45,918 bases of DNA from a bacterium (GCA_028821455.1 JAPPGE010000061.1:1-45918), one strand, 5' to 3'. Shown: positions 1,834 to 45,918, counted from the stretch's first letter. Made by a program: numbers and translations. The notes: a model not told the origin generated them from the sequence alone.

Positions 1834-1843
1834 AGCCCTCTGG

Positions 1844-1858
1844 CAGGCGGGGCGCCTG
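1844..1858. terminator. Hairpin between convergent urocanase-like and M24 genes
   Basis: CAGGCG-GGG-CGCCTG is a perfect 6-bp stem with a 3-base loop in the 31-bp gap between two convergent genes. No T-run follows on either strand, so intrinsic termination is only suggested by position. Confidence 0.35.
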
Positions 1859-1864
1859 GCCCGG

Positions 1865-3097
1865 CTACAGCAGCGCTGCCTCGAAAGGCATGTCGGAGAG
1901 GAGCTCGATGCCGCCCTCCTTCACGAGGATCTGCTGTTCGAGCTTGACGCCCTCCTTGCCGCCGGGCTTGCCGGCGTAGCTTTCGATGCAGAAGACCATG
2001 CCGGCCTCGACCATGCCGTTGTGACCGGCCTCCCTGTGGCGGGAGGCGTGGAGGACGATCGGGTACTCGTTGACGAGACCGACGCCGTGGGCGACCGCCG
2101 GAATCTGGTACTCCGAAAAGCTCCCCGGCAGGGCGTAGGCCTTCTCGGCGATCTCGTCGAATGTCGCTCCGGGGCAGAAGAGTTCCTGGTTTCGCATCAC
2201 CTGTTCGAAGGCAAGGCCGTAGAGTGTCTTTTGTTCTCCCGACGGCGGCCTGCCGTCGACGATCCAGCTGCGCGAGATGTCCGCCGAATATCCCATCGGA
2301 CCGACGAGATCGGAATCCAGGCTCACCATGTCGCCTGCCTCGACACGGCGGTTCGATGCCTCCTGATACCAGGGGTTGGTGCGCGGGCCGGAACTGAAGA
2401 GCCTTGTCTCGATCCACTCCCCGCCCAACCGGATGTTCGTCTCATGCAGGACCGACCAGATCGCGTTCTCGGTCATGCCGGGCTCGGTCGCTTCCATCAT
2501 GCCCGCGATGCCTTTCTGGCAGACGGCAACCGCGTCGCGCAGGGCATCGACCTCTTCAGGCGTCTTGATGCGGCGCGCACGCTCCGCCACCTCCCGGCCG
2601 TCGATGACCGTGCATCCGGCCTCCCGCAGGAGGTCCAGTCCTTGAGGATCGGCACGATCAATGGCAATTCGCCGGTTGCCGGCGCCATGCGCCGCCACCA
2701 GGTCGAGGATCTCCGCTGCCCAGACTCCAGCATTCTCACCGGTTCTCGGGCCGGAGATGCTGAAGTACCACGGGACGGCGTTGCGGACCTCGTTCACGGC
2801 AACGCAGTTCCCGGAGAGATGCCCGCAGCCCTTGAACTCGAAGAGCGTGACGGGGCCTTCCACCGGCACGACGACATAGCGGCAGGGATTGTGAAGGGCG
2901 TAGACCTGCATGTTCGAGGTGCCGGTGGCGTAGCGGATGTTGACCGGGTCATAGAAGAGACCGGCTCCGCAGTCGGCCCGCGCAATCTCGTTTCTCAGCC
3001 GGGCCAGCCTGCCGAGATCCAGTTTCTCGCGCCACCCCTGTCCCCGCTCCCCCAGCAGGTGGGCATCCGTTGTCCGGGTCTCGTTCATGGCGACCAT
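1865..3097 (-). CDS. DddP-like M24-family metalloprotein
   Basis: The 410-residue protein has the pita-bread (M24, creatinase/prolidase) fold and resembles the DMSP lyase DddP more than ordinary Xaa-Pro peptidases. DddP-like blocks are DPVNIRYATGTSNMQ and the stretch around GGEWIETRLFSSGPRTNPW. All six DddP-type metal ligands can be aligned: two Asp in SLDSDL, one in ADISRSW, His337 in HGVGL, Glu in CIESY and Glu in KLEQQ. The Asp proposed as catalytic base in DddP (six residues after the His) is Asn343 here, and the Tyr five residues before the His is Ile. A metalloenzyme is likely; true DMSP lyase activity is doubtful. An alternative start is at 3088; 3097 is preferred because GCGGGA lies upstream. 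It is divergent from the DAO/DMGDH pair. Confidence 0.8.
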   Translation of the reverse strand: MVAMNETRTTDAHLLGERGQGWREKLDLGRLARLRNEIARADCGAGLFYDPVNIRYATGTSNMQVYALHNPCRYVVVPVEGPVTLFEFKGCGHLSGNCVAVNEVRNAVPWYFSISGPRTGENAGVWAAEILDLVAAHGAGNRRIAIDRADPQGLDLLREAGCTVIDGREVAERARRIKTPEEVDALRDAVAVCQKGIAGMMEATEPGMTENAIWSVLHETNIRLGGEWIETRLFSSGPRTNPWYQEASNRRVEAGDMVSLDSDLVGPMGYSADISRSWIVDGRPPSGEQKTLYGLAFEQVMRNQELFCPGATFDEIAEKAYALPGSFSEYQIPAVAHGVGLVNEYPIVLHASRHREAGHNGMVEAGMVFCIESYAGKPGGKEGVKLEQQILVKEGGIELLSDMPFEAALL

Positions 3098-3200
3098 CAA
3101 GCATGTCCCGCAGCGTTGCGCAACCCTGCCTCGCGTGCGATTGCGCCGGCGCCAGGTCCGGGGTGGCGGGAGACCGTCAAGCGGTGGTATGGAGACCGTG

Positions 3201-3220
3201 CCTCCGGAGGTTTCCGGAGG
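3201..3220. promoter_or_regulatory. 8-bp-stem hairpin/palindrome in divergent intergenic region
   Basis: CCTCCGGA-GGTT-TCCGGAGG forms a perfect 8-bp stem with a 4-base loop. It sits 31 bases before the ATG of the DAO gene and between divergently transcribed catabolic genes. It could be a regulator binding site or a leader-RNA hairpin; no known riboswitch consensus was recognised. Confidence 0.35.
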
Positions 3221-3251
3221 GTGACCGGGAGAACAAGGGAGACCTGAAGCC

Positions 3252-4556
3252 ATGGCCGACACACGGGATGCCATCGTGATCGGAGCGGGGATCATCGGTG
3301 CCAGCACGGCGCGTGAACTTGCCGCCAGGGGCATGGATGTTCTGGCCGTCGATCGTCTGCCGGCGGCCAGCTACGGTTCGACCGCCAATTCCTGCGCGAT
3401 CGTTCGCCCGTACTATTCGACGGTGCACGGATCGGCCATTGCCTACGAGAGCCATTTCTACTGGTCCGACTGGGAGAACTACTGCGGCATCGTCGATGAA
3501 CGCGGCATGGCGCGATACAACAACGTCGGCTGCATGATCATGAAGACACGGCAGAACAACTTCCTCGAGAACATCCTCAAGGTCATGGACGAGATCGGCT
3601 GTCCCTACGAGGAACTGACGCCCGAGGAAGTCCGCCAGCGCATGCCGTCCGTCTCGACGGCGTGTTTCGGGGAGCCGCGCCGCACCGACGATCCGGACTT
3701 CGGCGAGCCCCTCGACCGCGAGGTCTTCGGCGCTGCCTACTTCCCGTGCGGCGGGTACATCTCGGACCCGCAGCTTGCCGGTCACAACGTCCAGAGGGCC
3801 GCGGAAAAACGCGGTGCAACGTTTCGATTCAACACCACCGTGACCGCCATCCGCCGCGACAACGGGCGCGTCAAGGGCGTCACCCTCGACAATGGCGAGG
3901 ATATCGATGCACCCGTGGTGGTCAACGTCGCCGGCCCGCATTCGTCGAAAATCAACGAGATGGCGGGTCTTGCCGGAACCATGCGCATCACGACCCGCGC
4001 CCTGCGCCACGAGGTGGCCCATGTGCCGGCGCCGGACGACTACGATTCCAGCGTCAGCCACGTCTTTTCGGACAGCGAGGTCGGCACCTATTGCCGCCCC
4101 GAGACGGGCAATCACATTCTCATCGGCAGCGAGGATCCGGCCTGCGACGACAAGGAATGGGTTGACCCGGATGACTATCTCCAGGAGTTCACGGGCATGT
4201 GGACGACCCTCGTCATGCGCCAGGCGCAGCGTTTCCCGGGACTGAAGATCCCGGGTTCCGCGGCCAGGGGCGCGGTTGACCTCTATGACGTCACCGAGGA
4301 CTGGGGACCCATCTACGACAAGTCGGACCTCGGCGGCTTCTACCTGGCGATCGGCACCAGCGGCAACCAGTTCAAGAATGCGCCCATCGCCGGCGAGATG
4401 ATGGCGGCCCTGATCGCCGCCTGCGAGGACGGCCAGGACCATGACGTCGACCCGGTAAGCTTCCATCTCCCGCACATTGATCGCGATGTCGACATGTCCT
4501 TCTTCTCGCGCAACCGGGAGATCAACCGGAACAGCACCTTTACCGTTCTGGGGTAG
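3252..4556 (+). CDS. FAD-dependent oxidoreductase, DAO/sarcosine-oxidase-beta-like
   Basis: A 434-residue member of the DAO superfamily, which oxidises secondary or tertiary amines and amino acids. The dinucleotide-binding motif GAGIIG lies at 11-16 within a typical beta-alpha-beta start, followed by an acidic/basic strand end (VDRL). The C-terminal FAD-binding segment includes GFYLAIGTSGNQFKNAP, as in sarcosine oxidase beta and DMGDH relatives. The start ATG has GGGAGA upstream. It ends 6 bp before the DMGDH-like gene, so the two are almost certainly co-transcribed. No signal peptide is seen, so it is probably cytoplasmic. The substrate is not readable from sequence; neighbours suggest an N-methylated amino acid or betaine derivative. 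Confidence 0.82.
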   Translation: MADTRDAIVIGAGIIGASTARELAARGMDVLAVDRLPAASYGSTANSCAIVRPYYSTVHGSAIAYESHFYWSDWENYCGIVDERGMARYNNVGCMIMKTRQNNFLENILKVMDEIGCPYEELTPEEVRQRMPSVSTACFGEPRRTDDPDFGEPLDREVFGAAYFPCGGYISDPQLAGHNVQRAAEKRGATFRFNTTVTAIRRDNGRVKGVTLDNGEDIDAPVVVNVAGPHSSKINEMAGLAGTMRITTRALRHEVAHVPAPDDYDSSVSHVFSDSEVGTYCRPETGNHILIGSEDPACDDKEWVDPDDYLQEFTGMWTTLVMRQAQRFPGLKIPGSAARGAVDLYDVTEDWGPIYDKSDLGGFYLAIGTSGNQFKNAPIAGEMMAALIAACEDGQDHDVDPVSFHLPHIDRDVDMSFFSRNREINRNSTFTVLG

Positions 4557-4562
4557 CAGCCG

Positions 4563-6977
4563 ATGCGGTCCCATGTGCGCGTGGCCGTCATTGGCGGTGG
4601 CGTTGTCGGGTGCAGTGTCCTCTATCACCTGACGAAGTTCGGCTGGTCCGATGTCATGCTCATCGAGCGCTCGGAACTGACCTCGGGCTCGACGTGGCAT
4701 GCGGCGGGTGGATTCCACACGCTGAACGCGGACCCCAACATGGCAGCCCTGCAGGGCTACACCATCCGCCTCTATCGCGAGCTCGAGGAGATCACCGGCC
4801 TTTCCTGCGGCCTCCACCATGTCGGTGGCCTGACCATCGCCGAATCACCCGACAGGATGGATTTCCTCAAGGCCGAACGGGCCAAGCACCGCCACATGGG
4901 ACTCGAAACCGAGATCGTCGGCCCCGGCGAGATCGCCGACTACACCCCCATCATCAACGCGGAAGGTCTCCTCGGGGCGCTCTGGGATCCCCTCGACGGA
5001 CACCTCGACCCCTCTGGAACGACTCATGCTTATGCCCGTGCGGCGAGGATGGCCGGGGCCGAGATCTCGCTTCAAAACCGTGTGCTCGAACTTCACCAGA
5101 GAAACGACGGCCACTGGGAAGTCGTCACCGAGAAGGGGTCCGTCGTTGCCGAGCATGTCGTCAATGCTGCCGGGCTTTGGGCCCGCGAAGTGGGCATGAT
5201 GGCGGGTGTCCGTCTGCCTCTCCATCCGCTCGAGCACCAGTACCTCGTCACCGGCGACATCGAGGAGGTCTACGGGCACGACAAGGAACTTCCCCATGTC
5301 ATGGATCCCTCGGGCGAGAGCTACCTCAGACAGGAGGGCCGGGGTCTCGTCATCGGCATCTACGAGCAGGCCTGCCGGCACTGGGCCGTCGACGGCACGT
5401 CCTGGGATTTCGGGCACGAGCTTCTCGCCGATGACATCGACCGCGTTGCCGGGCCTCTGGAAACCGCCTACCAGCGCTATCCCGTGCTGCAGTCCGCCGG
5501 AATCAAGCGCATCATCAACGGCCCCTTCACCTTCGCTCCCGACGGCAATCCCCTGGTGGGACGGGTTCCGGGCGTTCCCGGATACTGGGCCTGCTGTGCC
5601 GTCATGGCCGGGTTCAGCCAGGCCGGAGGCGTCGGACTGGCCCTGGCGGAGTGGATGATCGAAGGCGAGCCGTCACGGGACATCTTCGCCATGGACGTGG
5701 CGCGTTTCGGAGATTGGGCGACGTCTGCCTGGACTCGCGCGAAGACCCGCGAGAACTACCAGAGGCGCTTTGCCATCGCCTATCCCAACGAGGAGCTTCC
5801 CGCAGGCCGGCCCTTCCACACGACGCCTGCCCACGGCGTGTGGAAGGAGCGGCGAGCCGTTTTCGGCAGCGCCTTCGGCATGGAACATGTCAACTACTTC
5901 GCGCCGCCGGGCGAGCCGCTCTACGAGACGCCGAGTTTCCGCCGCTCCAACGCCTTCGCCGCGACGGCCCGTGAGTGCCGCGGCGTTCGCGAGGGCGTGG
6001 GCATCAACGAGATCCACAACTTCTCCAAGTTCCGCATCGAGGGAGAGGGTGCGGCAGCCTGGCTCGACCGCATCATGGCCGGGCGAGTGCCGAAGGAGGG
6101 ACGGCTCACGCTGTCACCGCTTCTCAACCATCGTGGGCGACTGGCGGGAGATTTCACCATCGCCAGGGATGGGTCCGAGAGTTTCAGGGTGCAGGCGAGC
6201 TATGCCGCCCAGGATGCCCACATGCGCCTCTTTCTAGATCTCCTGCCCGAGCACGGGGTGACGGTCACCAACATCTCGCGCGATCTCGTCGGCTTCCAGA
6301 TCGCCGGGCCGCGGGCACGGGAACTGCTGCAGCGCACCACGGATGCCGATGTTTCGGGCAACGCCATGCCGTTCCGCGCAGTCCGCAACATCGCCATCGG
6401 CATGGTCGAGGCCACCGTGCAGCGGGTGACCTACACCGGGGATCTCGGCTACGAGATTTACGTGCCGCCCGTCCTCCAGCGCGCCCTCTTCGAGACCCTC
6501 GAGGGTGAGAGCGCCGGTCTCGGCCTCGTGCCCTTCGGCATGCGCGCCATGATGAGTCTGCGCCTGGAGAAATCCTTCGGTTCGTGGCTGCGCGAGTACC
6601 GGCCCGACTACACCGCCGCCGAGACCGGCCTCGATCGCTTCATTGCCTTCGACAAGGAGGACTTCCCCGGACGTGACACGGCCTTGAGGGAAGCCGCGGA
6701 AGGACCCGGACGACGGCTGGTGACGTTCGTCGTCGATGCCGCCGATGCCGACTGCGTCGCCGACGAACCGGTGTGGAGGGACGGCAAGGTCGTCGGTTTC
6801 GTCACGTCGGGGGGGTACGCCCACCACGTGGAGAAGTCCGTGGCGCTCGGTTTCGTGCCGGTCGACATGGCCGAGACTGGGGAAGAGTTCCAGATCGAGA
6901 TCCTAGGCGACATGCGCCGTGCCACCATTGTCGAGGCGCCGCTCTTCGATCCATCCGGTTCGCGCATGCGCATGTAG
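4563..6977 (+). CDS. Dimethylglycine dehydrogenase-like DAO-GcvT fusion
   Basis: The 804-residue protein has the domain order of dimethylglycine/sarcosine dehydrogenases. It has an N-terminal FAD domain (GGGVVG at 11-16), a linker (roughly 400-480), and a C-terminal folate-binding GcvT/aminomethyltransferase domain ending near residue 800. TSGSTWHAAG contains His46, aligned with the histidine that carries covalent FAD in DMGDH. These enzymes oxidatively demethylate a methylamine and pass the one-carbon unit to tetrahydrofolate. Length is normal for the family (about 800-860). It lies 6 bp after the preceding flavoprotein gene. Whether the substrate is dimethylglycine, sarcosine or another methylated amino acid is not decided by sequence; the Rieske oxygenase at 9.4 kb fits a glycine-betaine-like route. 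Confidence 0.88.
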   Translation: MRSHVRVAVIGGGVVGCSVLYHLTKFGWSDVMLIERSELTSGSTWHAAGGFHTLNADPNMAALQGYTIRLYRELEEITGLSCGLHHVGGLTIAESPDRMDFLKAERAKHRHMGLETEIVGPGEIADYTPIINAEGLLGALWDPLDGHLDPSGTTHAYARAARMAGAEISLQNRVLELHQRNDGHWEVVTEKGSVVAEHVVNAAGLWAREVGMMAGVRLPLHPLEHQYLVTGDIEEVYGHDKELPHVMDPSGESYLRQEGRGLVIGIYEQACRHWAVDGTSWDFGHELLADDIDRVAGPLETAYQRYPVLQSAGIKRIINGPFTFAPDGNPLVGRVPGVPGYWACCAVMAGFSQAGGVGLALAEWMIEGEPSRDIFAMDVARFGDWATSAWTRAKTRENYQRRFAIAYPNEELPAGRPFHTTPAHGVWKERRAVFGSAFGMEHVNYFAPPGEPLYETPSFRRSNAFAATARECRGVREGVGINEIHNFSKFRIEGEGAAAWLDRIMAGRVPKEGRLTLSPLLNHRGRLAGDFTIARDGSESFRVQASYAAQDAHMRLFLDLLPEHGVTVTNISRDLVGFQIAGPRARELLQRTTDADVSGNAMPFRAVRNIAIGMVEATVQRVTYTGDLGYEIYVPPVLQRALFETLEGESAGLGLVPFGMRAMMSLRLEKSFGSWLREYRPDYTAAETGLDRFIAFDKEDFPGRDTALREAAEGPGRRLVTFVVDAADADCVADEPVWRDGKVVGFVTSGGYAHHVEKSVALGFVPVDMAETGEEFQIEILGDMRRATIVEAPLFDPSGSRMRM

Positions 6978-6988
6978 GTCCCGGTCCG

Positions 6989-7003
6989 GTAACACAACTT
7001 TAC
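6989..7003. promoter_or_regulatory. Inverted repeat upstream of Spy-like/two-component operon
   Basis: GTAA-CACAACT-TTAC, a 4-bp inverted repeat with a 7-base spacer, lies about 70 bases before the first gene of the operon. OmpR/CpxR-class regulators often bind GTAA-type half sites, so autoregulation is plausible but unproven. Confidence 0.25.
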
Positions 7004-7071
7004 ACACGCGCAACATTCGGGACATCGGCGGCGCCCATGATGTGTTTCATCACTGAAAGAGGGCACGAACC

Positions 7072-7524
7072 ATGACCGACATGACCGAGAAACCCCGCCG
7101 CCGCCGCTGGTGGATCGCCGGAGCCATTGCTCTGGCGGTCGTCGTGGCCGCAGGCGCCGTCGCGTTCTCGTTCCATGGCCACGGGATTGAACGGTTTGCC
7201 GAGAAACGCATCGATCGCATGCTGGACAAGGTCGATGCCAGCGACGGCCAGCGTGCCGAGGTGGCAGGTATTGTCGGGGAGGCGGTTGCCGACATGAAGG
7301 AACTGCGCGGCCTCTTCCAGGAGAGCCGGCAGACCCTGCTCGACACCCTCGGGGCGGAGACCGTCGACCGCGAGGCCCTGGAGGAACTGCGCCTGGCGAA
7401 TCTGCAGACCGTGGACCAGGCCAGCAGGCGTCTCGTGACCGCCCTTGCCGATGTGGCGGATGTCCTCACGCCCGAACAGCGCCGCGAACTCGTCCGGCAC
7501 ATGCAGCGCCACGAGCGTCCATGA
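7072..7524 (+). CDS. Spy/CpxP-family periplasmic protein
   Basis: A 150-residue protein with a short basic N-terminus, a single hydrophobic segment (about 13-33) and an alpha-helical remainder ending in LTPEQRRELV, the LTxxQ-type motif of the Spy/CpxP/CnrX group. Such proteins sit in the periplasm and either chaperone unfolded proteins or modulate a sensor kinase. The stop overlaps the next ATG (ATGA), coupling it to the response regulator. This arrangement matches envelope or metal-stress systems in which the Spy-like protein is an accessory sensor or inhibitor. The ligand is unknown. Confidence 0.75.
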   Translation: MTDMTEKPRRRRWWIAGAIALAVVVAAGAVAFSFHGHGIERFAEKRIDRMLDKVDASDGQRAEVAGIVGEAVADMKELRGLFQESRQTLLDTLGAETVDREALEELRLANLQTVDQASRRLVTALADVADVLTPEQRRELVRHMQRHERP

Positions 7525-8207
7525 CGCACTTGCTGATGATCGAGGACGACCGTGACCTCGCCTCGATGGTGCAGGTCTACCTGGCCCGGGCGGGCATGAC
7601 CCTCGAACATCACGCCAGCGCTGCCAGGGGTCTTGCCGCCGCGGCGAGGGGCGGGTTCGATGCGGTCATCCTCGATCTCATGCTTCCCGACGCCGACGGA
7701 CTCGATGTGTGCCGGACCATCCGGGCACGCTCGGACGTTCCCGTCCTGATGCTGACGGCCCGCGGCGCGGAGGAGGATCGTATCGTCGGCCTCGAGATCG
7801 GCGCCGACGACTACCTCGCCAAGCCCTTCAATCCGCGCGAGCTTCTTGCACGCCTGCGCGCCATCCTTCGCCGGCGCACGTCGACTCCCGACATCATGCG
7901 GTTTGGCCGCCTGGTAATCGACCGGTCGACCCGCACCGTGACCCTCGATGGCGAGGAGCGGGCGCTCACGGGCCATCAGTTCGACCTCCTCGTCGCCCTG
8001 GCAGGGAATGCGGGACGCGTCCTCAGCCGTGATCAGCTCATGGAAAGGGTGCGGGGCACGTCTCTCGAGGCCTTCGACCGGAGCATCGATGTGCATGTCT
8101 CGAGAATCAGGGCGGCGATCGAGGATGATCCGGGCAACCCGCGGCGCATCGTCACGCTGCGCGGCGCCGGGTATCTGTTCACGGGCCGCCGGGACGACGA
8201 AGGGTGA
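7521..8207 (+). CDS. OmpR-family response regulator
   Basis: The 228-residue protein has an N-terminal receiver domain with the acidic pocket (EDD at 8-10), phospho-acceptor Asp52 in ILDLMLPD, the conserved Thr (LTA) and Lys (AKPFNPREL). A C-terminal winged-helix DNA-binding domain follows (about 130-223). It overlaps the Spy-like gene upstream and the kinase gene downstream by 4 bases each, giving a coupled stimulus-response operon. CpxR/RstA-type regulators are the closest in architecture; the regulon is not known. Confidence 0.9.
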   Translation: MTHLLMIEDDRDLASMVQVYLARAGMTLEHHASAARGLAAAARGGFDAVILDLMLPDADGLDVCRTIRARSDVPVLMLTARGAEEDRIVGLEIGADDYLAKPFNPRELLARLRAILRRRTSTPDIMRFGRLVIDRSTRTVTLDGEERALTGHQFDLLVALAGNAGRVLSRDQLMERVRGTSLEAFDRSIDVHVSRIRAAIEDDPGNPRRIVTLRGAGYLFTGRRDDEG

Positions 8208-9430
8208 GGCGGCGCCTCTTCTTCCAGGTCTATCTCACGTTCCTTGCCATCATCGTCCTCTTTGGCGTGCTGACCGCGCTGGCATGGTGGTTCATCCCCG
8301 ATGAACACCGGGCAGGCGACTTCACCCGGGGCATGGGGTCTTACCTCCAGGAGACTCTGCCGCCGGCCGGAGCGCCGCGGCACCAGATGGATGCCCATCT
8401 CGCCCGCCTGGCGAGGCACTTCGATGTCGACCTCACCCTGTTTGCTGCCGACGGCAGTGTCCTGGGGAGTGCCGGCTCCGGTACCGGGGAGGAGAGGCGG
8501 CGCCACCGGCACGCCATCATGCTTCCCGACGGCCGGACCATGGAGGTCGACTGGTCGAGGAATGGTGTCTCAGGCGCCGGATTCATTGTCGTCCCCGGTC
8601 TTCTCGCGCTGGCCGCCGCCATCGGCGCCTGGCCCCTGTCGCGCCGTCTCGCCGGGCGTCTCGAGCGGCTGAAGTCCAGGGTCGAGGCCCTGGGTTCAGG
8701 GGATCTCCAGGCGCGCGTCAAGGTCGAGGGCAGGGACGAGATCGCCGCCCTGGCGACGAGCTTCAACCGCGCCGCCGGTCGTATCGAGAACCTTGTGGAA
8801 GCCCAGCGCAACACCCTGGCGGCAGCATCCCATGAACTGCGATCCCCGCTGGCGCGGATCGCCATGGCCACCGGACTCCTTGCCGATTATGCGGATCAAG
8901 ATCTGGTGGCCCGGATCGAGCGCGACATTGCGGAGCTCGATCAGCTGATCGACGAAATCCTGCTCGGCAGCCGCCTCGAGATCGATGAGGGACCGGCCCG
9001 TGTTGACGAGATCGATCTTGGCGCACTCGCCGCCGAGGAGGCGGCCCGCTTCGAGGTCGCGTTCACCGGCGGCACGGCCGTGATCGAGGTGGAAAAACAC
9101 CTGGTCCGTCACCTCGTGCGCAACCTTCTCGGCAATGCGCGGCGTCATGCCGCAGGAAGTCCGGTGAGCGTCGATGTGTCGGCCGACGGGCCATGGGTGC
9201 GCCTTCGTGTCGCCGACAGGGGCCCCGGGGTGAGCGAATCCATGAGGGAGAGCATCTTCGAACCGTTCCGCTCCTTCGCCGCTGATGGCAAGGGCGCCGG
9301 TCTCGGTCTCTATCTGGTGCGGCGCATTGCCAGACGCTACGGTGGTGACGCAGTCTGCCTCGAGAGGCCGGACGGAGGCGCGCTCTTCGAGGTGAGCCTG
9401 CCCGCCAGGGGAGAGGAGCAGGGCCCATGA
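8204..9430 (+). CDS. Membrane sensor histidine kinase
   Basis: A 408-residue classic kinase with two membrane segments (about 7-28 and 127-145) flanking a periplasmic sensor of about 100 residues, a HAMP linker, an H-box with His210 (ASHELRSPLAR), an N-box (LVRNLLGNARRH), and G-boxes DRGPGV and GAGLGLYLV. It starts at GTG overlapping the regulator stop (GTGA). Its own stop TGA overlaps the ATG of the Rieske oxygenase gene, an unusual coupling of a kinase gene to a catabolic enzyme gene. The signal sensed is unknown. Confidence 0.9.
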   Translation: MRRRLFFQVYLTFLAIIVLFGVLTALAWWFIPDEHRAGDFTRGMGSYLQETLPPAGAPRHQMDAHLARLARHFDVDLTLFAADGSVLGSAGSGTGEERRRHRHAIMLPDGRTMEVDWSRNGVSGAGFIVVPGLLALAAAIGAWPLSRRLAGRLERLKSRVEALGSGDLQARVKVEGRDEIAALATSFNRAAGRIENLVEAQRNTLAAASHELRSPLARIAMATGLLADYADQDLVARIERDIAELDQLIDEILLGSRLEIDEGPARVDEIDLGALAAEEAARFEVAFTGGTAVIEVEKHLVRHLVRNLLGNARRHAAGSPVSVDVSADGPWVRLRVADRGPGVSESMRESIFEPFRSFAADGKGAGLGLYLVRRIARRYGGDAVCLERPDGGALFEVSLPARGEEQGP

Positions 9431-10554
9431 CAAGCACGCTCGATGCCGGCGGCTTTGACGTCTCTGCCGAGCACTCGACCACGCTGCCCTCGAGCTGGTA
9501 CCGGGATCCCGCCATCTGGCGCCTCGAGCACGAGGCGATCTTCTACCGCAGTTGGTGGTACCTGGGACATGTGAGCGACCTCCCCCGGCGCGGCGACTAC
9601 CTCACCGGCAGGATTGTCGATCAGAATGTCCTCGTCATCAGGGGCCACGACGGGGTGTTGCGCGCCTTTCACAACGTGTGTAGCCACCGCGCCCATCCGC
9701 TGCTCGAGGGTTGCGGCAACACGGCCTTCATCATCTGCCCCTATCACCAGTGGACCTACGACGCGAACGGCCGTTTTCGCCAGGGTCGGGGATGTGAGCC
9801 TCTGAAGGACTGGACGGCGGGGAACGCCGACCTCAAGCCCGTGCGGCTGGAGGACTACGGCGGCTTTCTCTTCGTCAACCTCGATGCCGGAGCCGTCCCC
9901 CTCATCGACCAGGCGGGGAGCTTTCTCAAGGACATGCATCGCGCTTGCCCGCGGCTGCCGGACCTGGTGCGCGCCTGTCGCTGGGAAGTCGACGTACAGG
10001 CCAACTGGAAGACGGTGATTGACAACAATCACGAGTGTTACCACTGCGACGTCAATCACCGGTCACTGATGGAGCTCGTCGACTATGACGGCCAGGCAGT
10101 CTGGTCCGATGACGGCATCACATTCAGCCACAGGATCGCCGCCAGGGATCTCGACAACACGGCCTATCGCCTCGAAGCGGTGGACGTCGAGCAGAAGGAA
10201 GCCCTTTTCGGCTACATCTGGCCCACCGCAATTCCCCTCATGTACCCCGGCAGCCCGCATCTGGCGATGTTCCAGGTCCTGCCCACCGGTCCCGAGACCA
10301 CCCGCGAGAGATGGGACTTCTACTTCACCTCCCGCGAGCCCTCGGAGTTCGAGAGGCGGTTCATGGACTACATCCGCACCGTCCTCGTGGTCGAGGATGT
10401 CGGGCTCTGCGAGAACGTCCAGCAGGGCCTCAACTCACTGGGCTATCACCAGGGGCGGTTCGTCGTCGACAGGGATCATCCCGAATACAGCGAGCACCAC
10501 GTGCACTTCTTCCAGTCCATGGTGCTGGACTCGCTCAAATCCTTCACGGCGTGA
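9427..10554 (+). CDS. Rieske non-heme iron oxygenase, choline/betaine-type alpha subunit
   Basis: The 375-residue oxygenase has a Rieske [2Fe-2S] site C85-x-H87-x16-C104-x2-H107 and a mononuclear iron site in NNHECYHCDVNH (His206 and His211), with Asp324 in VVEDVGL as the probable third ligand. This arrangement is typical of choline monooxygenase, glycine-betaine monooxygenase GbcA and other quaternary-ammonium oxygenases, which remove or oxidise an N-methyl group. No ferredoxin reductase gene (GbcB-like) is present in the window, so the electron donor must be elsewhere. The start ATG overlaps the kinase stop. Its 3' end overlaps convergent ubiA by 11 bp. With the DMGDH-like gene nearby, a betaine to dimethylamino-acid route is plausible. 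Confidence 0.85.
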   Translation: MTSTLDAGGFDVSAEHSTTLPSSWYRDPAIWRLEHEAIFYRSWWYLGHVSDLPRRGDYLTGRIVDQNVLVIRGHDGVLRAFHNVCSHRAHPLLEGCGNTAFIICPYHQWTYDANGRFRQGRGCEPLKDWTAGNADLKPVRLEDYGGFLFVNLDAGAVPLIDQAGSFLKDMHRACPRLPDLVRACRWEVDVQANWKTVIDNNHECYHCDVNHRSLMELVDYDGQAVWSDDGITFSHRIAARDLDNTAYRLEAVDVEQKEALFGYIWPTAIPLMYPGSPHLAMFQVLPTGPETTRERWDFYFTSREPSEFERRFMDYIRTVLVVEDVGLCENVQQGLNSLGYHQGRFVVDRDHPEYSEHHVHFFQSMVLDSLKSFTA

Positions 10555-11452
10555 CCGGGACGAGACGGCCCAGGACAAGTCCGGCAAAGACCAGGAGGCC
10601 AATCCGGTTGTTGGCGGAAAAGGCCCTCAAGCATGATCCCGGGTCATCGAGATCGACGGTGACGAGCTGCCTTGCCAGATCGGCGGCGGCGATGGCGAGG
10701 ACCACCAGGAAGGGCCACCCGGTCCCGGCCAGGTAGCCGGCCAGGGCCGCCCCGGCAACGAAAACGCCGTAGAAAAGACCGGTGAGGAGTTTTGTGCTCT
10801 CGCCGAAGGCAAGTGCCGTCGACTTCACGCCGATCCGCTCATCGTCCGTCTTGTCCTGGTGGGCATAGATCGTGTCATAACCGATCGTCCATGCGATGGC
10901 GGCGAGATAGAGCACCAGGGGCTCGGGCGAGAGTGTGCCCCTGACCGCGACCCAGCCGACCAGGGCCCCCCAGCTGAAGGCGAGGCCGAGAAAGAGCTGC
11001 GGCCAGTAGGTGACGCGTTTCATGAAGGGATAGATGACCACCAGGCCAAGGGAGGCGAGACCTGTGATGATCGCTGCCTGGTTGAACTGGAGAAGGACGA
11101 CGAGACCCGCGGCAAGCAGCAGGCCAAGGAAGACCAGGGCGCCCGGCAGCGTGACGGCGCCGCTGGCGAGGGGGCGATCGCGGGTCCGCTCGACCCGGGC
11201 GTCGATCCGCCGGTCGACGATGTCGTTGACGATGCAGCCGGCGGACCGCATCACCACGGCTCCGGCGGCGAAAAGGCCAAGGAGCGTCCAGTCCGGCCAT
11301 CCAGGCGAAGCCAGGGCAACCGCCCACCAGCAGGGCCACATCAGGAGCCAGAAGCCCGCGGGCCTGTCGACGCGCGCCAGTTGCAGCCACGGCCGCCACG
11401 ATTCGGGCGCCCGAGCGTTGACCCACTCCCTGAAGAACGGACGCCGGCTCAT
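10544..11452 (-). CDS. ubiA: 4-hydroxybenzoate polyprenyltransferase
   Basis: A 302-residue integral membrane prenyltransferase that attaches the polyprenyl tail to 4-hydroxybenzoate in ubiquinone synthesis. Both Asp-rich, Mg-pyrophosphate binding motifs are present: NDIVDRRID (Asp77, Asp80, Asp84) and YDTIYAHQDKTDD (Asp193-Asp204). About eight hydrophobic helices are visible and length matches the family. It is transcribed divergently from gshA and converges on the Rieske gene. Confidence 0.95.
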   Translation of the reverse strand: MSRRPFFREWVNARAPESWRPWLQLARVDRPAGFWLLMWPCWWAVALASPGWPDWTLLGLFAAGAVVMRSAGCIVNDIVDRRIDARVERTRDRPLASGAVTLPGALVFLGLLLAAGLVVLLQFNQAAIITGLASLGLVVIYPFMKRVTYWPQLFLGLAFSWGALVGWVAVRGTLSPEPLVLYLAAIAWTIGYDTIYAHQDKTDDERIGVKSTALAFGESTKLLTGLFYGVFVAGAALAGYLAGTGWPFLVVLAIAAADLARQLVTVDLDDPGSCLRAFSANNRIGLLVFAGLVLGRLVPVTP

Positions 11453-11573
11453 TCAGGTGACTCCCGGAATGGCGCACGCCGACATTGTCTGCCGCCGGCC
11501 GTCTTTGCAAGGGCCCCATGCGCGGGATATCGTGCGCGCCGCCAATCGAGGCGCCCGGGGAGCCATATCGATC

Positions 11574-12935
11574 GTGTCCATACCGTCCGCACAGAACGCC
11601 ACGCCGGTCACATCCCGCAACCAGCTCGTCGAAGTCCTGGAATCGGGGTGCAAGCCGCCCGAGGAGTGGCGGGTCGGCACGGAGCACGAGAAGTTCGCCT
11701 ACGACGCCGAGACCCGCAGGCCCCTCTCCTACGACGCTCCCAACGGCATCCGCGTCATCCTCGAGGAATTGCAGCGATTTGGCTGGCAGCCGCTCATGGA
11801 GGGAGACCATGTCATCGGGTTGAAGAAGGACAACCAGCACGTTTCCCTGGAACCGGGGGGGCAGGTGGAGCTCTCCGGCGCCCCCTTGAAGACGCTCCAT
11901 GAATCCTGTCGCGAGGTGAATGCCCACCTGGACCAGTGCCAGGAAGTCGCCGAGGAGCTCGGCATCATCTTCCTCGGCCTTGGGTTGAGACCCCTCGACC
12001 GTCGCCAGGACGTGCCCTGGATGCCCAAGGGCCGCTACCGGATCATGCGGGAATACATGCAGAAGGTCGGGACCATGGGCCTCGACATGATGGTCGGCAC
12101 CTGCACCATCCAGGCCAATCTGGATTTCGCTTCCGAGGCGGACATGGTGCAGAAGTTCAGGGTCGCCCAGGCGCTGCAGGCGGTGACCACCGCGCTTTTC
12201 GCCAACTCGCCCTTCAGCGAGGGAAAGCCCAACGGCTACCTGTCGATGCGCGCCCACATCTGGACCGACACCGACAATGACCGCAGCGGCTTGCTGAAGT
12301 TCGTCACCGAGGACGGGTTCGGATTCGAGCGATACGTCGACTACGCTCTCGATGTGCCAATGTACTTCGTGCTGCGCGACGGGCGCTACATCGACGCCTC
12401 GGGCCAGTCGTTCCGCGACTTCATGGAGGGCCGCCTGCCTGCCCTGCCAGGCGAAATCCCGACGATCTCCGACTGGGAAGACCACCTGACCACACTGTTC
12501 CCGGACGTCCGGATCAAGCGGTACATGGAAGTACGCGGCGCCGATGGCGCCAGCTGGCGGCGCATCTGTGCGCTGCCCGCCCTGTGGACCGGGCTGCTCT
12601 ACGTGTCGTCGCAACTCGATGCGGCCTGGGAGATGGTGCGGGACTGGACCTGGGAAGAGCAGGTGCAGATGAAGGCCGACGTGCCGCGGCTCGGGCTGAG
12701 GGCGCCGTTCAGGTCGGGCACCGTCCAGGATGTCGCCCGTACCATGCTGGAAATCTCCTGCGAAGGACTCTACCGGCGGCGCTACTACGACGGCAGCCTC
12801 GACGAGGTGCATTTTCTCGACTCGCTGATGGAGATTGCGATGTCGGGAAGAACCCCGGCGGAGATCCTTCTGGATCGATGGGAGAACGCCTGGGGCGGCA
12901 GTATCGATCCGGTGTTCAGTGAGTTCTCGTTCTGA
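11574..12935 (+). CDS. gshA: Glutamate-cysteine ligase (plant/proteobacterial type)
   Basis: The 453-residue product makes gamma-glutamylcysteine, the first step of glutathione synthesis. Family hallmarks include the early WRVGTEHEKF block, HVSLEPGGQVELSG, and MVGTCTIQANLDF. The frame is open upstream, but recognisable homology starts after the GTG at 11574, which has GGGGAG about 11 bases upstream and gives the usual length of about 455. It is divergent from ubiA and is followed 28 bp later by a RidA-family gene. Confidence 0.93.
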   Translation: MSIPSAQNATPVTSRNQLVEVLESGCKPPEEWRVGTEHEKFAYDAETRRPLSYDAPNGIRVILEELQRFGWQPLMEGDHVIGLKKDNQHVSLEPGGQVELSGAPLKTLHESCREVNAHLDQCQEVAEELGIIFLGLGLRPLDRRQDVPWMPKGRYRIMREYMQKVGTMGLDMMVGTCTIQANLDFASEADMVQKFRVAQALQAVTTALFANSPFSEGKPNGYLSMRAHIWTDTDNDRSGLLKFVTEDGFGFERYVDYALDVPMYFVLRDGRYIDASGQSFRDFMEGRLPALPGEIPTISDWEDHLTTLFPDVRIKRYMEVRGADGASWRRICALPALWTGLLYVSSQLDAAWEMVRDWTWEEQVQMKADVPRLGLRAPFRSGTVQDVARTMLEISCEGLYRRRYYDGSLDEVHFLDSLMEIAMSGRTPAEILLDRWENAWGGSIDPVFSEFSF

Positions 12936-42243: not shown

Positions 42244-42459
42244 GGCTCCAGTATAGGATGATGCGGACACCGAGGGCCACAAGGGGCGCCGCCGATTACC
42301 CGCGTGCGGCCTAGCGCACCGACACGACGGTGATGATCCATGAATAGCCGCGGAGCCTTCGGAAAACCGGCCGGGCAGGCGACTCTGTTGGACACCAGGA
42401 AGAAAGAGGGAGAATCAACAATGAAATTGGGCAAGCACTCCATTGACAAGTGACGCTCG

Positions 42460-43422
42460 ATGGTTAGGTTAAGAATAGAACAAAACATGAACGACGATGA
42501 GCGACAAGATATCCTCTTCAGCTACGAGTTCCACGAGGTATCTCCTGACAAAGCCAAGGCAGCTACATGGTTCGAGAGTCAGCTTTGGCCTATCGATCGG
42601 TTTTGCCCACACTGCGGTTCTGACAACACTGTTGAATGCACGAAACCACAGCCTTATCGTTGTCGCGATTGCCGTAGGTACTTCAGCGCCCGCAGAGGAA
42701 CCCTGATGCAGTCAAGCAAGCTTCCGATCAAGAAGTCGCTCTATGCGGTCTACCTCATCGGCGTGCGCAAGAAGAGGTTGTCCAGTCTGCAATTGGCCTG
42801 CAAGTTAGGGATCGCCCGAGGGACCGCATGGCGGCTTGGACACAAGACTCGCGAGATGTGGAGTCAAGATGCTCTGTTCCCGATGTATGGTGAGCTCAAG
42901 ATTGACGGGAGCTGTGTCAGTGGTCTGGAGAAGAGAGAGCACAAGCACAATAGGATGTATGCGGGCCGTGGCACCATTGGCATGCAACCCGCCATGGGGA
43001 GGCCTCAACGCGACAATCGCCAAATTCATAACTGGCCCGCGGATTTCACTCCCGCCAGAGTTTTGCAACCGCACATTCGAGTGAACGTAGAGCCTGACTC
43101 CACCGTCTACACGAAATGTGTAGGCGCCTTCGAAGGAATGCACCACCACCAACATGAGGTGGTTGCACACGGTGTAGGTGAGTATGTCCGAGACAAAGTA
43201 GGCACTAACGAAATCGAGTCCATTTGGACTCCTCTGAATCGCGAGATTATTGACTCCTACCAACATGTGAGCGTCAAGCGTCTGTTTCGATATGTCGATG
43301 AGGTCTACTGCCTCGACGACATCTGGAAAGCACATGCATTCAGCCTTATGGCGGCAAGCGCCGTCGAGATAGTGGGGCGAGGGCTCATGCGCAGAGCACT
43401 GGTCGATGGAGACGCGACATGA
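42460..43422 (+). CDS. IS1595/ISXO2-like transposase-derived protein, catalytic Asp lost
   Basis: A 320-residue homologue of IS1595-family (ISXO2-like) transposases. The N-terminal zinc ribbon is intact (C49-x2-C52, C68-x2-C71), followed by a helix-turn-helix region (SSLQLACKLGIARGTAWRL). In the DDE/DDN domain the first Asp is kept (Asp149, KIDGS), but the second, normally in TVYTD, is Lys219 (TVYTKCVGAF). The third region GTNEIESIW (Asn250, Glu253) and GVGEYV are kept, as is RLFRYVDE. The stop overlaps the methyltransferase ATG (ATGA) and no terminal inverted repeat was seen, so this is not a free-standing IS. Base composition is lower in GC than the chromosome. An ATG at 42487 is an alternative start; TTGACA at 42443 is a possible -35. 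DNA binding without transposition is inferred. Confidence 0.8.
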   Translation: MVRLRIEQNMNDDERQDILFSYEFHEVSPDKAKAATWFESQLWPIDRFCPHCGSDNTVECTKPQPYRCRDCRRYFSARRGTLMQSSKLPIKKSLYAVYLIGVRKKRLSSLQLACKLGIARGTAWRLGHKTREMWSQDALFPMYGELKIDGSCVSGLEKREHKHNRMYAGRGTIGMQPAMGRPQRDNRQIHNWPADFTPARVLQPHIRVNVEPDSTVYTKCVGAFEGMHHHQHEVVAHGVGEYVRDKVGTNEIESIWTPLNREIIDSYQHVSVKRLFRYVDEVYCLDDIWKAHAFSLMAASAVEIVGRGLMRRALVDGDAT

Positions 43423-44429
43423 GAGCCGAATCTGCGATCAGGAACCTGCCGGGAAGCTTCAACCAGACCGTCGCGAAGCTGTCGGGGACGCCGGTCAAGA
43501 CCTATCGCGTAGTGTCACTGTTCAGCGGATGCGGTGGCATGGACTTGGGGTTTCTAGGCGGCTTCTCGTTCGGTGACCGCTTCTATGACCGATTGCCGTT
43601 TCGCATCGTGTGGGCGAACGACATCAATACCGCCGCCGGCTGCACCTATGCGGAAAACATGAAGCATAGCATTGTGGTCGGCGATGTAGCGGAACATATG
43701 GATCAACTGCCCAAGACCGCTGAAGTAGTGATCGGCGGTTTCCCTTGTCAGGACGTTTCGATCAATGGCGCTAGGCAGGGCGCGAATGGCGAGCGAACGA
43801 TCCTCTACAAATACATGATCTCCGCGATCGAGCGCACAAAGCCGCGAATCTTCGTGGCCGAGAATGTCAAGGGTCTGTTGCAGGCACACGGCAAGGACTT
43901 CCTCGACACCATGCTGAGTGACTTCGCCGCGACCGGCTATCGGGTGAGCCATCGTCTTTACCTCGCCGCCGACTATGGCGTGCCTCAGATGCGTGAACGG
44001 TTGTTCATTGTTGGCGTGAAGGGTCGTCGCGAGTTTGAGCACCCTGCACCTGACCTGCGCCACATGACAGCCCAAGAGGCACTATCCGATCTTGAGGACG
44101 CAAAGGAGAACGAGGCGATAGGTCATGTGTGGTCAAAGGCGCAAGCCAGCCCGGATCAGGGGAACCGCCGATTGAAGGCCGACAAGCCTGCCACTACCAT
44201 CCGGGCGGAACATCACGGGAATATCCAGTGGCACTACAACCTCGACCGACGGCTGTCCCTTCGGGAAGCGGCCAGACTCCAGTCCTTTCCCGATGGGTTC
44301 CGGTTCCATGGTGGTATGCGCGAGCGCGAACGGATGATTGGCAATGCGGTCCCGCCCGTGCTGGCGTGGCACATTGCCAAGGCAGTGCGAGAGTTCCTTG
44401 ACCCCGGACGAGTTCGAGCGGGTTCTTGA
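43419..44429 (+). CDS. DNA (cytosine-5)-methyltransferase
   Basis: A 336-residue C5 methyltransferase of the type II R-M kind. Motif I is SLFSGCGGMDLGF, motif IV GGFPCQDVS with catalytic Cys110, motif VI AENVKGL, motif VIII PQMRERLFIVG, motif IX LSLREAARLQSFPDGF and motif X GNAVPP. The target-recognition stretch between VIII and IX is short (about 80 residues) and its site is not predictable. It overlaps the transposase-like gene by 4 bases at the start and the endonuclease gene by at least 32 bases at the end. The following Vsr fits a C5 enzyme, since deaminated 5-methylcytosine gives T:G mismatches. Confidence 0.94.
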   Translation: MRAESAIRNLPGSFNQTVAKLSGTPVKTYRVVSLFSGCGGMDLGFLGGFSFGDRFYDRLPFRIVWANDINTAAGCTYAENMKHSIVVGDVAEHMDQLPKTAEVVIGGFPCQDVSINGARQGANGERTILYKYMISAIERTKPRIFVAENVKGLLQAHGKDFLDTMLSDFAATGYRVSHRLYLAADYGVPQMRERLFIVGVKGRREFEHPAPDLRHMTAQEALSDLEDAKENEAIGHVWSKAQASPDQGNRRLKADKPATTIRAEHHGNIQWHYNLDRRLSLREAARLQSFPDGFRFHGGMRERERMIGNAVPPVLAWHIAKAVREFLDPGRVRAGS

Positions 44430-45402
44430 TCGCGCTTGCGATATTCTGACGGAGAACGTTCGCTCCAGCACGCTCTATCACGGTCCTGAACCCTTCGAGC
44501 AACACGTCCAGGACATGCTGAAGGTTGCGGCGAAGGACACCGGCTTCACTGTGTCCCCGACTTTCAACCGGTACGCCTTTCCGGATATCCGGGTGAACGG
44601 CTACGGCGTTGAGGTCAAGTACACGAAGCAGGACACATGGACCGCGGTAGGCAACAGTATTTTCGAGGGGATGCGCGACCCTGACGTTCACTCCATCTAT
44701 GTCGTGCTTGGCAAAATCGGCGGCACTCCCGAGGTCCGGTGGGGCCGCTACGAAGATGCGGTGACGCATGTGCGCGTGTCCAACTCGCCGCGTTTTGTGA
44801 TCGAGTTGGAGACTGAGCGGGCCCCGCTATTCTCTCACATGGCGATCCCATATGGTGAATTTGCCCAATTGGGCGATGAAGCCAAGATGCGGCACGTTCG
44901 AGACTATTCGCGGGGTCGACTGAAGGAGGGCGAGCGACTGTGGTGGCTGGAACCGGAACACTCGTTGCCTCTCCAAGTCCGACCTTACCCAGACCTGCCT
45001 GATGCGGAAAAACGTGCATTGCGGGCTGAGGCTTCGTTGCTATCGCCTCAAATCTGCGGCCCATCGCACGGCCGCACGGCACAGCGAAAGTACGCCGCGC
45101 CTGCGCTCTACCTGCTAATGCACCATGGCGTGATCGCGCCGCAGACGCGGGATCTGTTCTCTGCGGGTAGCGTTGCGCAGCACATTCCGCCGCTCTACGA
45201 GGGCGAGCCTCATGTGTCCCGTGCGCTACGGGGCATTGAGGACTTGATGCGGGACGCGGCAGAGCGGTTGGAGGATGCCCTGTTCGAGGAGTATTGGGGC
45301 CGTCGGTGCCCACCTGATGAGCGGATCGCCGAGTGGCTCAGGATGGCGGATGCCGTAGCAATAGGCTGGCGACCGTCAGATCACTTGTTCTTGGCTCACT
45401 AG
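44398..45402 (+). CDS. PD-(D/E)XK restriction endonuclease
   Basis: A 334-residue nuclease with a clear PD-(D/E)XK core: Pro62-Asp63 then Glu72-Val73-Lys74 (FPDIRVNGYGVEVKYTK). The context (C5 methyltransferase upstream, Vsr downstream) makes it the restriction enzyme of the cassette. No specific restriction family was recognised and the recognition site is unknown. Homology-free upstream codons make the TTG at 44398 the best start (GAGAG upstream); an ATG at 44344 is possible. Any start must lie at or before 44398, so it overlaps the methyltransferase gene. The C-terminal third is helical with Glu/Arg-rich segments. Confidence 0.85.
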   Translation: MTPDEFERVLDRACDILTENVRSSTLYHGPEPFEQHVQDMLKVAAKDTGFTVSPTFNRYAFPDIRVNGYGVEVKYTKQDTWTAVGNSIFEGMRDPDVHSIYVVLGKIGGTPEVRWGRYEDAVTHVRVSNSPRFVIELETERAPLFSHMAIPYGEFAQLGDEAKMRHVRDYSRGRLKEGERLWWLEPEHSLPLQVRPYPDLPDAEKRALRAEASLLSPQICGPSHGRTAQRKYAAPALYLLMHHGVIAPQTRDLFSAGSVAQHIPPLYEGEPHVSRALRGIEDLMRDAAERLEDALFEEYWGRRCPPDERIAEWLRMADAVAIGWRPSDHLFLAH

Positions 45403-45418
45403 GCGAGGAGAAATCCGG

Positions 45419-45823
45419 ATGAGTGACGCCACTGAGATTAAGCGGCGTGGAGTGGCGGCAGTTCGCAGCAAGAACACCAAACCCGAGATGGCTGTCCGCC
45501 GGATGCTGCACGCCCAAGGTTACAGATACCGCCTACACAGAACGGACCTGCCTGGATCGCCCGATCTCGTGTTCCCCAGCCGCAAGAAGGTGATATTCGT
45601 CAACGGTTGCTTTTGGCATGGACACTCATGCAAGAACGGCTCGCGCCGACCACCATCCAACACAAGCTATTGGCTTCCTAAGATCGCTCGCAATGTTGAG
45701 CGTGACGCCAAGAACATATCGAGCCTCGAAGTTCTCGGATGGCAGTCCTTGACGGTCTGGGAATGTGAGTTGAAGCGCTCACCTGAAGAACTGCGGAGCC
45801 GCATCACACGATTCCTGGGCTAA
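45419..45823 (+). CDS. vsr: Very-short-patch repair endonuclease Vsr
   Basis: A 134-residue T:G mismatch nickase. It has RSKNTKPEMAVRRMLH, GYRYRLHRTDLPGSPDLVF with Asp49 (E. coli Asp51) and NGCFWHGHSC with His67 (E. coli His69). The residue aligned with E. coli His64 is Asn62. Vsr cuts beside T:G mismatches arising from deaminated 5-methylcytosine in the site of its partner methyltransferase. The ATG follows GGAG and lies 16 bp after the endonuclease stop, so it is the last recognised gene of the cassette. Confidence 0.94.
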   Translation: MSDATEIKRRGVAAVRSKNTKPEMAVRRMLHAQGYRYRLHRTDLPGSPDLVFPSRKKVIFVNGCFWHGHSCKNGSRRPPSNTSYWLPKIARNVERDAKNISSLEVLGWQSLTVWECELKRSPEELRSRITRFLG

Positions 45824-45869
45824 GCGTGATACTATTGCGCCTTGTTCAAGTACCCACAAAGTACCTAAC

Positions 45870-45882
45870 CCGGCATAGCCGG
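45870..45882. terminator. Short hairpin after vsr
   Basis: CCGGC-ATA-GCCGG is a perfect 5-bp stem 46 bp after the vsr stop, without a T-run. Just before it, AAGTACC occurs twice (45848-45854 and 45859-45865). It may mark the cassette end or its 3' boundary; weak. Confidence 0.25.
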
Positions 45883-45918
45883 AACCAAAGTTCTGCGAGA
45901 TGGTATGCTGAGTCCAGC

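What the first reader, a model, noticed from the sequence alone, without database searches (positions are those of the whole stretch)
42460..45823. Restriction-modification-Vsr operon headed by a catalytically altered IS1595-like transposase
The transposase-like gene is joined by an ATGA overlap to a C5 methyltransferase gene, which overlaps a PD-(D/E)XK endonuclease gene, followed by vsr. The transposase-like protein keeps its zinc ribbon and much of the fold, but the second catalytic Asp (TVYTD in relatives) is Lys219 and the residue after the first Asp is Gly. Stop-start coupling with no visible terminal repeats between the genes argues against a chance IS insertion. A co-opted DNA-binding partner of an R-M system would be new. 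An alternative is an IS1595-family element carrying the R-M genes as passengers, as that family is known to carry passenger genes.
Basis: partly seen in the sequence, partly recalled or inferred. Interest (0 to 1): 0.85.

Follow-up and report, generated by a model that had tools for sequence, protein, structure and literature searches.

The report
Immobilised transposon fossil heading restriction-modification operon
A bacterial DNA-defence operon sits behind a transposase gene that can no longer cut DNA; the pair is the stranded remains of a small jumping element whose relatives carry many different DNA-defence systems, and only the zinc-binding domain of the dead transposase still looks preserved by selection.

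Summary
An IS1595-type transposase gene (42460-43422; the start is probably 42487) overlaps a C5 methyltransferase gene by ATGA, followed by an overlapping PD-(D/E)XK nuclease gene and vsr. The second catalytic Asp is Lys219, and the residue after the first Asp is Gly.

Its origin is clear. The closest relatives are intact transposases of a 2-4 kb IS1595 transposon group with GGGRATTATATA ends and 8-bp target duplications. Of 24 end-bounded elements, 13 carry methyltransferase, restriction, Mom or GIY-YIG genes. One, in a Boseongicola MAG, carries the same methyltransferase-nuclease pair behind an intact transposase. Two more lie in this genome. So the R-M genes are passengers.

The window copy is immobile: catalytic residues and left end are gone, and the contig stops 95 bp after vsr.

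The unexpected part: outside the zinc ribbon the protein has lost about 40% of near-invariant positions, yet the ribbon (residues 36-85) is as conserved as in active transposases. The frame has no stop, which is unlikely under neutral decay.

Most likely this is a stranded R-M transposon whose dead transposase survives as a zinc-ribbon, probably DNA-binding, leader protein. That regulatory role is inferred. A passive fossil remains the main rival.

The parts
42293..42459 (.). left junction zone: chromosomal backbone shared with two close relatives ends at 42280-42292; left end of the acquired segment lies here; no IS1595-type terminal repeat recognisable
   Evidence: blastn to two same-genus genomes, 90-92% identity ending at 42292 and 42280; weight-matrix scan best score 1.2 against 12-25 for 19 of 20 training ends; no inverted-repeat pair
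42443..42448 (+). TTGACA, possible -35 box at about the place where relatives have TTGAC inside their terminal repeat (weak; no good -10)
   Evidence: read from sequence, compared with relatives' ends; the promoter scan found no sigma-70 match
42460..43422 (+). IS1595-type transposase gene, 320 aa (likely start ATG 42487), catalytically inactivated (D219K, E150G), no stop or frameshift
42565..42714 (+). zinc ribbon, residues 36-85 of the transposase-like protein; the only part with normal conservation
43419..44429 (+). C5 cytosine DNA methyltransferase, 336 aa, motifs intact, ATGA overlap with the transposase gene
44398..45402 (+). PD-(D/E)XK-type restriction endonuclease (FPD...EVK), 334 aa from TTG 44398; the longer frame begins at 44338
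   Evidence: PADLOC REase_II 7e-85; 49% and 44% identity to plasmid homologues
45419..45823 (+). vsr, very short patch repair endonuclease, 134 aa
   Evidence: TIGR00632 147 bits, cut-off 97.85; GSPDLVF and NGCFWHGH motifs
45824..45918 (.). last 95 bp of the contig; right end of the acquired segment is not present
   Evidence: contig G000:C23 is 45918 bp; no second copy of this stretch in the genome

Best explanation
The segment from about 42300 to the contig end is a stranded IS1595-family transposon whose cargo is a type II R-M system (C5 methyltransferase, PD-(D/E)XK nuclease, Vsr). Shown: intact relatives with terminal repeats and target duplications carry R-M cargo ATGA-coupled to the transposase, including the same R-M type; this copy has lost catalytic residues and left repeat, so it should not be able to move by its own transposase; its R-M genes keep their motifs. 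Also shown by comparison: only the zinc ribbon of the dead transposase kept normal conservation, and the frame stayed open. Inferred: the gene is still translated as the leader of the operon (stop-start coupling to the methyltransferase), and its zinc ribbon still binds DNA, most likely near the operon promoter, so that the former transposase acts as a non-catalytic autoregulator much as the InsA protein of IS1 does (InsA from my own knowledge).
For: Origin: G300 has four near-identical 2.75-kb copies of [ends]-tnp-ATGA-methyltransferase-BglII type nuclease, one with the 8-bp duplication AATTTTAA. A 3,200-bp Boseongicola element with perfect 31-bp ends and duplication CTTCTATC holds an intact transposase, ATGA-overlapping C5 methyltransferase (60% to the window's) and the same nuclease family (41%); its methyltransferase, the window's and one other form a clade (99/100). 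13 of 24 end-bounded relatives carry DNA modification, restriction or related nuclease cargo, as do four of the five closest viral-contig members. Insertion: backbone identity stops at 42280-42292; none of 15 other genomes of the order has the nuclease. Immobility: D219K and E150G, with both Asp kept in every full-length relative checked; no left repeat. Retained ribbon: 13/14 near-invariant positions kept against 33/57 elsewhere (Fisher p 0.012); block contrast 1.88 against at most 0.62 in any relative, permutation p below 5e-5; excess against 67 other IS1595 proteins z 3.3. Open frame: neutral simulation gave P(no stop) at most 0.007 at 38% replacement and at most 0.04 at 25%. The transposase end branch is 3.1 against a median 0.29. 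With the same 12 sequences AlphaFold2 gives the intact relative pLDDT 79.5 / pTM 0.77 and the window protein 50.3 / 0.34, best around the ribbon.
Against: One sequence only: no close relative of the altered protein was found, so dN/dS cannot be computed. The helix-turn-helix region, probably needed for strong end binding, is as eroded as the catalytic core. No operator, promoter or terminal repeat was found upstream. The right end is missing. An ancient exchange that replaced only the ribbon cannot be excluded, although no close donor was found. In one relative (L175) a NotI-type cargo sits behind a frameshifted transposase, so an intact leader is not always needed. Nothing about expression or binding was tested.
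Confidence: 0.6

Rival explanations
1. Passive fossil. Same origin, but the transposase-derived protein does nothing; the open frame survives only because translation must run through it into the methyltransferase start, or because the decay is recent.
For: Outside the ribbon, near-invariant and variable columns decayed by nearly the same factor (DDE core 0.59 and 0.53), as in a protein without residue-level constraint; the AlphaFold2 model of the core is poor; most R-M relatives lack any such gene.
Against: Does not explain why residues 36-85 alone show no loss. A recent decay does not fit a branch ten times the median.
Confidence: 0.28
2. Trans-acting inhibitor. The dead transposase is kept because its zinc ribbon binds ends of related IS1595 elements and dampens their transposition, rather than regulating its own operon.
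For: The genome holds two intact relatives of the group, with Mom and N6-methyltransferase cargo.
Against: Ribbon identity to those two copies is only 56% and 44%, and the helix-turn-helix region is eroded.
Confidence: 0.08
3. Constitutive R-M partner: a transposase-derived subunit that belongs to this R-M family.
For: Stop-start coupling and operon layout; some relatives have small RHH, MerR or Cro-type genes just upstream of the methyltransferase.
Against: 50 of 51 loci with the nuclease family show no IS1595 gene, and the one that has it keeps an intact transposase inside a bounded transposon.
Confidence: 0.03
4. Still mobile in trans: the element has usable ends outside the contig or unrecognised ends, and is moved by the intact relatives in the genome.
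For: Two intact relatives are present and the right end is not in the contig.
Against: No end-like site on the left between the backbone junction and the gene; no second copy of the transposase gene or of the last 95 bp.
Confidence: 0.04

Closest known systems
IS1595 family with passenger genes (tIS; Siguier et al. 2009, cited in PMC5704250 and PMC8101967)
   Same: zinc ribbon plus DDE_Tnp_IS1595 domain, passenger genes next to the transposase; relatives have GG-starting ends and 8-bp target duplications
   Different: window copy lacks catalytic-motif residues and recognisable ends; the passenger-carrying members described in the papers I could read are a lincomycin resistance element and a mobilisable element, not R-M (PMC5704250)
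Mobile R-M units (Furuta et al. 2010, not held, known from citations; IS-linked movement of PaeR7I, PMC3031569)
   Same: R-M genes carried by a transposable unit
   Different: here the cargo is coupled to one transposase gene inside a single transposon, not flanked by two IS copies
Boseongicola MAG transposon, L123 (VYCX01000135.1)
   Same: transposase, C5 methyltransferase with ATGA overlap, same nuclease family
   Different: transposase intact, perfect 31-bp ends and 8-bp duplication, no vsr detected
G065 contig 111 element, L229
   Same: catalytically dead transposase heading an R-M pair, stop-start coupling kept
   Different: dead by one in-frame deletion of the DDE core; ends and 8-bp duplication kept; N4/N6 methyltransferase plus BglII-type nuclease
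Controller (C) proteins of type II R-M systems
   Same: small DNA-binding gene upstream of the R-M genes is the role proposed here
   Different: zinc ribbon in a 320-aa transposase remnant instead of a small HTH protein; regulation not shown

Membership tests
IS1595-family transposase / insertion sequence | DDE_Tnp_IS1595 (ISXO2-like) domain | tested here: met
   52.5 bits, cut-off 27; NF033547 91.6 bits, cut-off 75
IS1595-family transposase / insertion sequence | N-terminal zinc ribbon | tested here: met
   24.9 bits against a cut-off of 25.4, so marginal by Pfam; 13 of 14 near-invariant positions kept
IS1595-family transposase / insertion sequence | complete DDE catalytic residues | tested here: not met
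   second Asp is Lys219; residue after first Asp is Gly150
IS1595-family transposase / insertion sequence | terminal inverted repeats starting GG | tested here: not met
   none on the left side; right side lies beyond the contig
IS1595-family transposase / insertion sequence | 8-bp target duplication | not testable with these tools
   right junction is not in the assembly
Type II restriction-modification system | DNA methyltransferase with intact motifs | tested here: met
   PF00145 2e-63; PCQ, ENV and other motifs present
Type II restriction-modification system | adjacent restriction endonuclease with intact active-site motif | tested here: met
   PDLC03508 7e-85; PD and EVK columns invariant with homologues; same gene pair found in most of the loci carrying the nuclease
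Type II restriction-modification system | matched cleavage and methylation activity | not testable with these tools
   needs biochemistry or methylome data
Controller protein of an R-M system | DNA-binding regulator acting on the operon promoter | not testable with these tools
   ribbon constraint suggests binding; no operator found

The most novel reading that the evidence does not exclude
A transposase has been turned, inside its own transposon, into the regulator of the R-M cargo: catalysis and mobility were lost while the zinc ribbon kept binding near the operon promoter, making an R-M controller of transposase origin.
Probability: 0.35. Interest if true: 0.75.

Novelty: new variant of a known kind. 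Interest (0 to 1): 0.55.

Why it matters
R-M systems are known to move often, but the vehicle is usually unclear. The relatives found here form a compact transposon group, seen in many genomes of the window's class and in viral contigs, in which about half of the bounded elements carry restriction, modification, Mom or GIY-YIG defence genes, mostly translated directly behind the transposase. That gives a concrete, testable vehicle for R-M spread. The window adds a stage that is rarely caught: the vehicle is stranded and its transposase is dead, yet one domain is still preserved, which suggests a route from transposase to cargo regulator.

Tried and rejected
Close relatives of the altered protein: none in 85,000 genomes or viral contigs with peptide patterns, nor in several hundred genomes by direct search (best 38-40%). 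Terminal repeats in the window: none. Continuation of the contig: no overlap found. Frameshift as the cause of divergence: rejected, since the protein aligns in one frame throughout. Recent exchange of the ribbon with resident copies: no close DNA match. Placing the window transposase in the tree: unresolved because of its long branch (p-AU 0.09-0.17 for three tested groups). Structure model of the window protein: too poor for a fold search, so none was run. PDB sequence search: no informative hit for the nuclease or the transposase. Literature: no paper found in the held library describes this transposon group or a transposase-derived R-M regulator; Furuta 2010 is not held.

Full report
Observation. 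The first matches IS1595 transposases, the second C5 methyltransferases, the third a PADLOC type II restriction enzyme model, the fourth Vsr. The transposase gene ends in ATGA, shared with the methyltransferase start. Counting from 42460, the second catalytic Asp is Lys219 and the residue after the first Asp is Gly150; relatives have DETYVGG and VYTD. The likely start is ATG 42487, which matches the length of the N-terminus in relatives. The nuclease aligns with homologues from TTG 44398. The methyltransferase, nuclease and Vsr motifs are intact.

Where it lies. The window is the whole of contig 23 of a 4.36-Mb draft genome. Two same-genus genomes match the flank at 90-92% DNA identity up to 42280-42292 and then differ. 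None of the 15 other genomes of the order has the nuclease. G+C falls from 0.62-0.71 to mostly 0.52-0.62. So the segment was acquired; its right end is not in the assembly.

What the relatives are. The closest transposases, at 35-40% identity, are intact and belong to one group. In G300 four near-identical copies define a 2.75-kb element: ends GGGAATTATATA, transposase, N4/N6 methyltransferase starting in the transposase stop codon, BglII-type nuclease, and an 8-bp duplication at one copy. A scan of other relatives gave 24 distinct elements bounded by such ends, 19 with perfect 8-bp duplications. Thirteen carry DNA modification, restriction or related nuclease genes: Mom, D12 methyltransferase with NotI, C5 methyltransferase with GIY-YIG, methyltransferase with HNH, methyltransferase-HNH fusions, type IIG with specificity subunit, an N6 methyltransferase, UzuA, and two elements with a methyltransferase-nuclease pair (BglII type in G300; the window's type in L123). 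Two of the thirteen are in the window's own genome. Viral contigs hold more of the same kind.

The same R-M type in an intact transposon. A scan of 85,000 genomes and of viral contigs with the nuclease alignment gave 51 loci. Nearly all pair it with the related methyltransferase, some with vsr, and all but one show no IS1595 gene. The exception, L123 from a Boseongicola MAG, is a 3,200-bp element with perfect 31-bp ends, the duplication CTTCTATC, an intact transposase and an ATGA-overlapping methyltransferase. The methyltransferases of the window, L123 and one further alphaproteobacterium form a clade with support 99/100; the order within it is unresolved. This makes passenger carriage the best-supported origin and argues against this R-M family generally using a transposase-derived partner.

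Loss of mobility. Apart from the window, every full-length relative inspected keeps both Asp residues. A weight matrix of relatives' ends finds nothing between the backbone junction and the gene, and no inverted repeat pair brackets the genes.

The unexpected part. I compared the window protein with 25 intact relatives, column by column, using leave-one-out values of the relatives as the yardstick. In residues 36-85, the zinc ribbon, the window is about as conserved as the relatives (13 of 14 near-invariant positions; variable positions 0.54 against 0.50, for residues 24-85). Everywhere else it has lost about 40-50% of the expected matches. The contrast between block and rest is 1.88; the largest in any relative is 0.62. 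The block was chosen after seeing a sliding profile, so the permutation value (below 5e-5) is somewhat flattering; the comparison with the best block of each relative is fairer. Across 67 other IS1595 proteins the ribbon excess is 3.3 standard deviations. The frame has no stop, whereas neutral simulations to 25-38% amino-acid replacement give a stop-free gene in at most 4% and 0.7% of runs. The end branch of the transposase is 3.1 against a median of 0.29, while the window methyltransferase branch is 0.58. With the same 12 sequences AlphaFold2 models the intact L123 transposase well and the window protein poorly, except for moderate confidence around the ribbon. This agrees with an eroded core, but a single shallow alignment is weak evidence.

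Mechanism. Shown: passenger origin in the group, loss of catalytic residues and left end, intact R-M motifs, a selectively retained ribbon, an open and stop-start coupled frame. Inferred: translation of the remnant as operon leader, and DNA binding by the ribbon near the promoter. In several relatives a TTGAC box lies inside or next to the end repeat, so a protein that binds the end would also control the promoter; the window keeps a TTGACA at 42443, but no convincing promoter or operator was found. Some other members of this R-M family have RHH, MerR or Cro-type genes just upstream of the methyltransferase, so that place is used by regulators elsewhere. The eroded helix-turn-helix region argues against a full end-binding activity.

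A second dead transposase. L229 (G065 contig 111) is a duplication-flanked element in which an in-frame deletion removed the DDE core but left ribbon, helix-turn-helix and the stop-start link to a methyltransferase and BglII-type nuclease. It looks recent, so it shows that such derivatives arise, not that they are selected. L175 shows the opposite: a frameshifted transposase before a NotI-type pair.

Verdict. A real and informative feature, with an ordinary origin as an IS1595 passenger transposon and one unexplained trait, the selective retention of the zinc ribbon. What is new, as far as the papers held allow me to say, is the R-M rich IS1595 group with translationally coupled cargo and the possible transposase-to-regulator step. 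The second point rests on one sequence.

Noticed in passing
L033 (G000:C78), 5689-7388: Intact IS1595-type transposon in the same genome whose cargo is a Mom-family DNA modification protein, with 8-bp duplication CAAGCGAC.
   Followed up: partly
L034 (G000:C51), 7985-11595: Second intact transposon in the same genome, carrying an 860-aa N6 methyltransferase resembling type I/IIG enzymes.
   Followed up: partly
L229 (G065:C111), 607-3644: Bounded element whose transposase lost its DDE core by an in-frame deletion, leaving a 159-aa zinc-ribbon/HTH protein coupled to a methyltransferase and BglII-type nuclease.
   Followed up: yes
L042 (G289:C16), 6672-7493: Relative whose cargo matches the PADLOC UzuA model (GIY-YIG domain), inside ends with 8-bp duplication AATATTGA.
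   Followed up: no
L047 8980-9405; L056 7360-7785; L059 8477-8878: Small proteins of about 133-141 aa follow the transposase in several elements, twice before a methyltransferase-HNH fusion; the one scanned (L047) has no Pfam match.
   Followed up: no
L093 4824-5069: 81-aa gene of unknown family with an ATGA overlap to the closest tnp-free methyltransferase relative, just after an integrase-like gene.
   Followed up: partly
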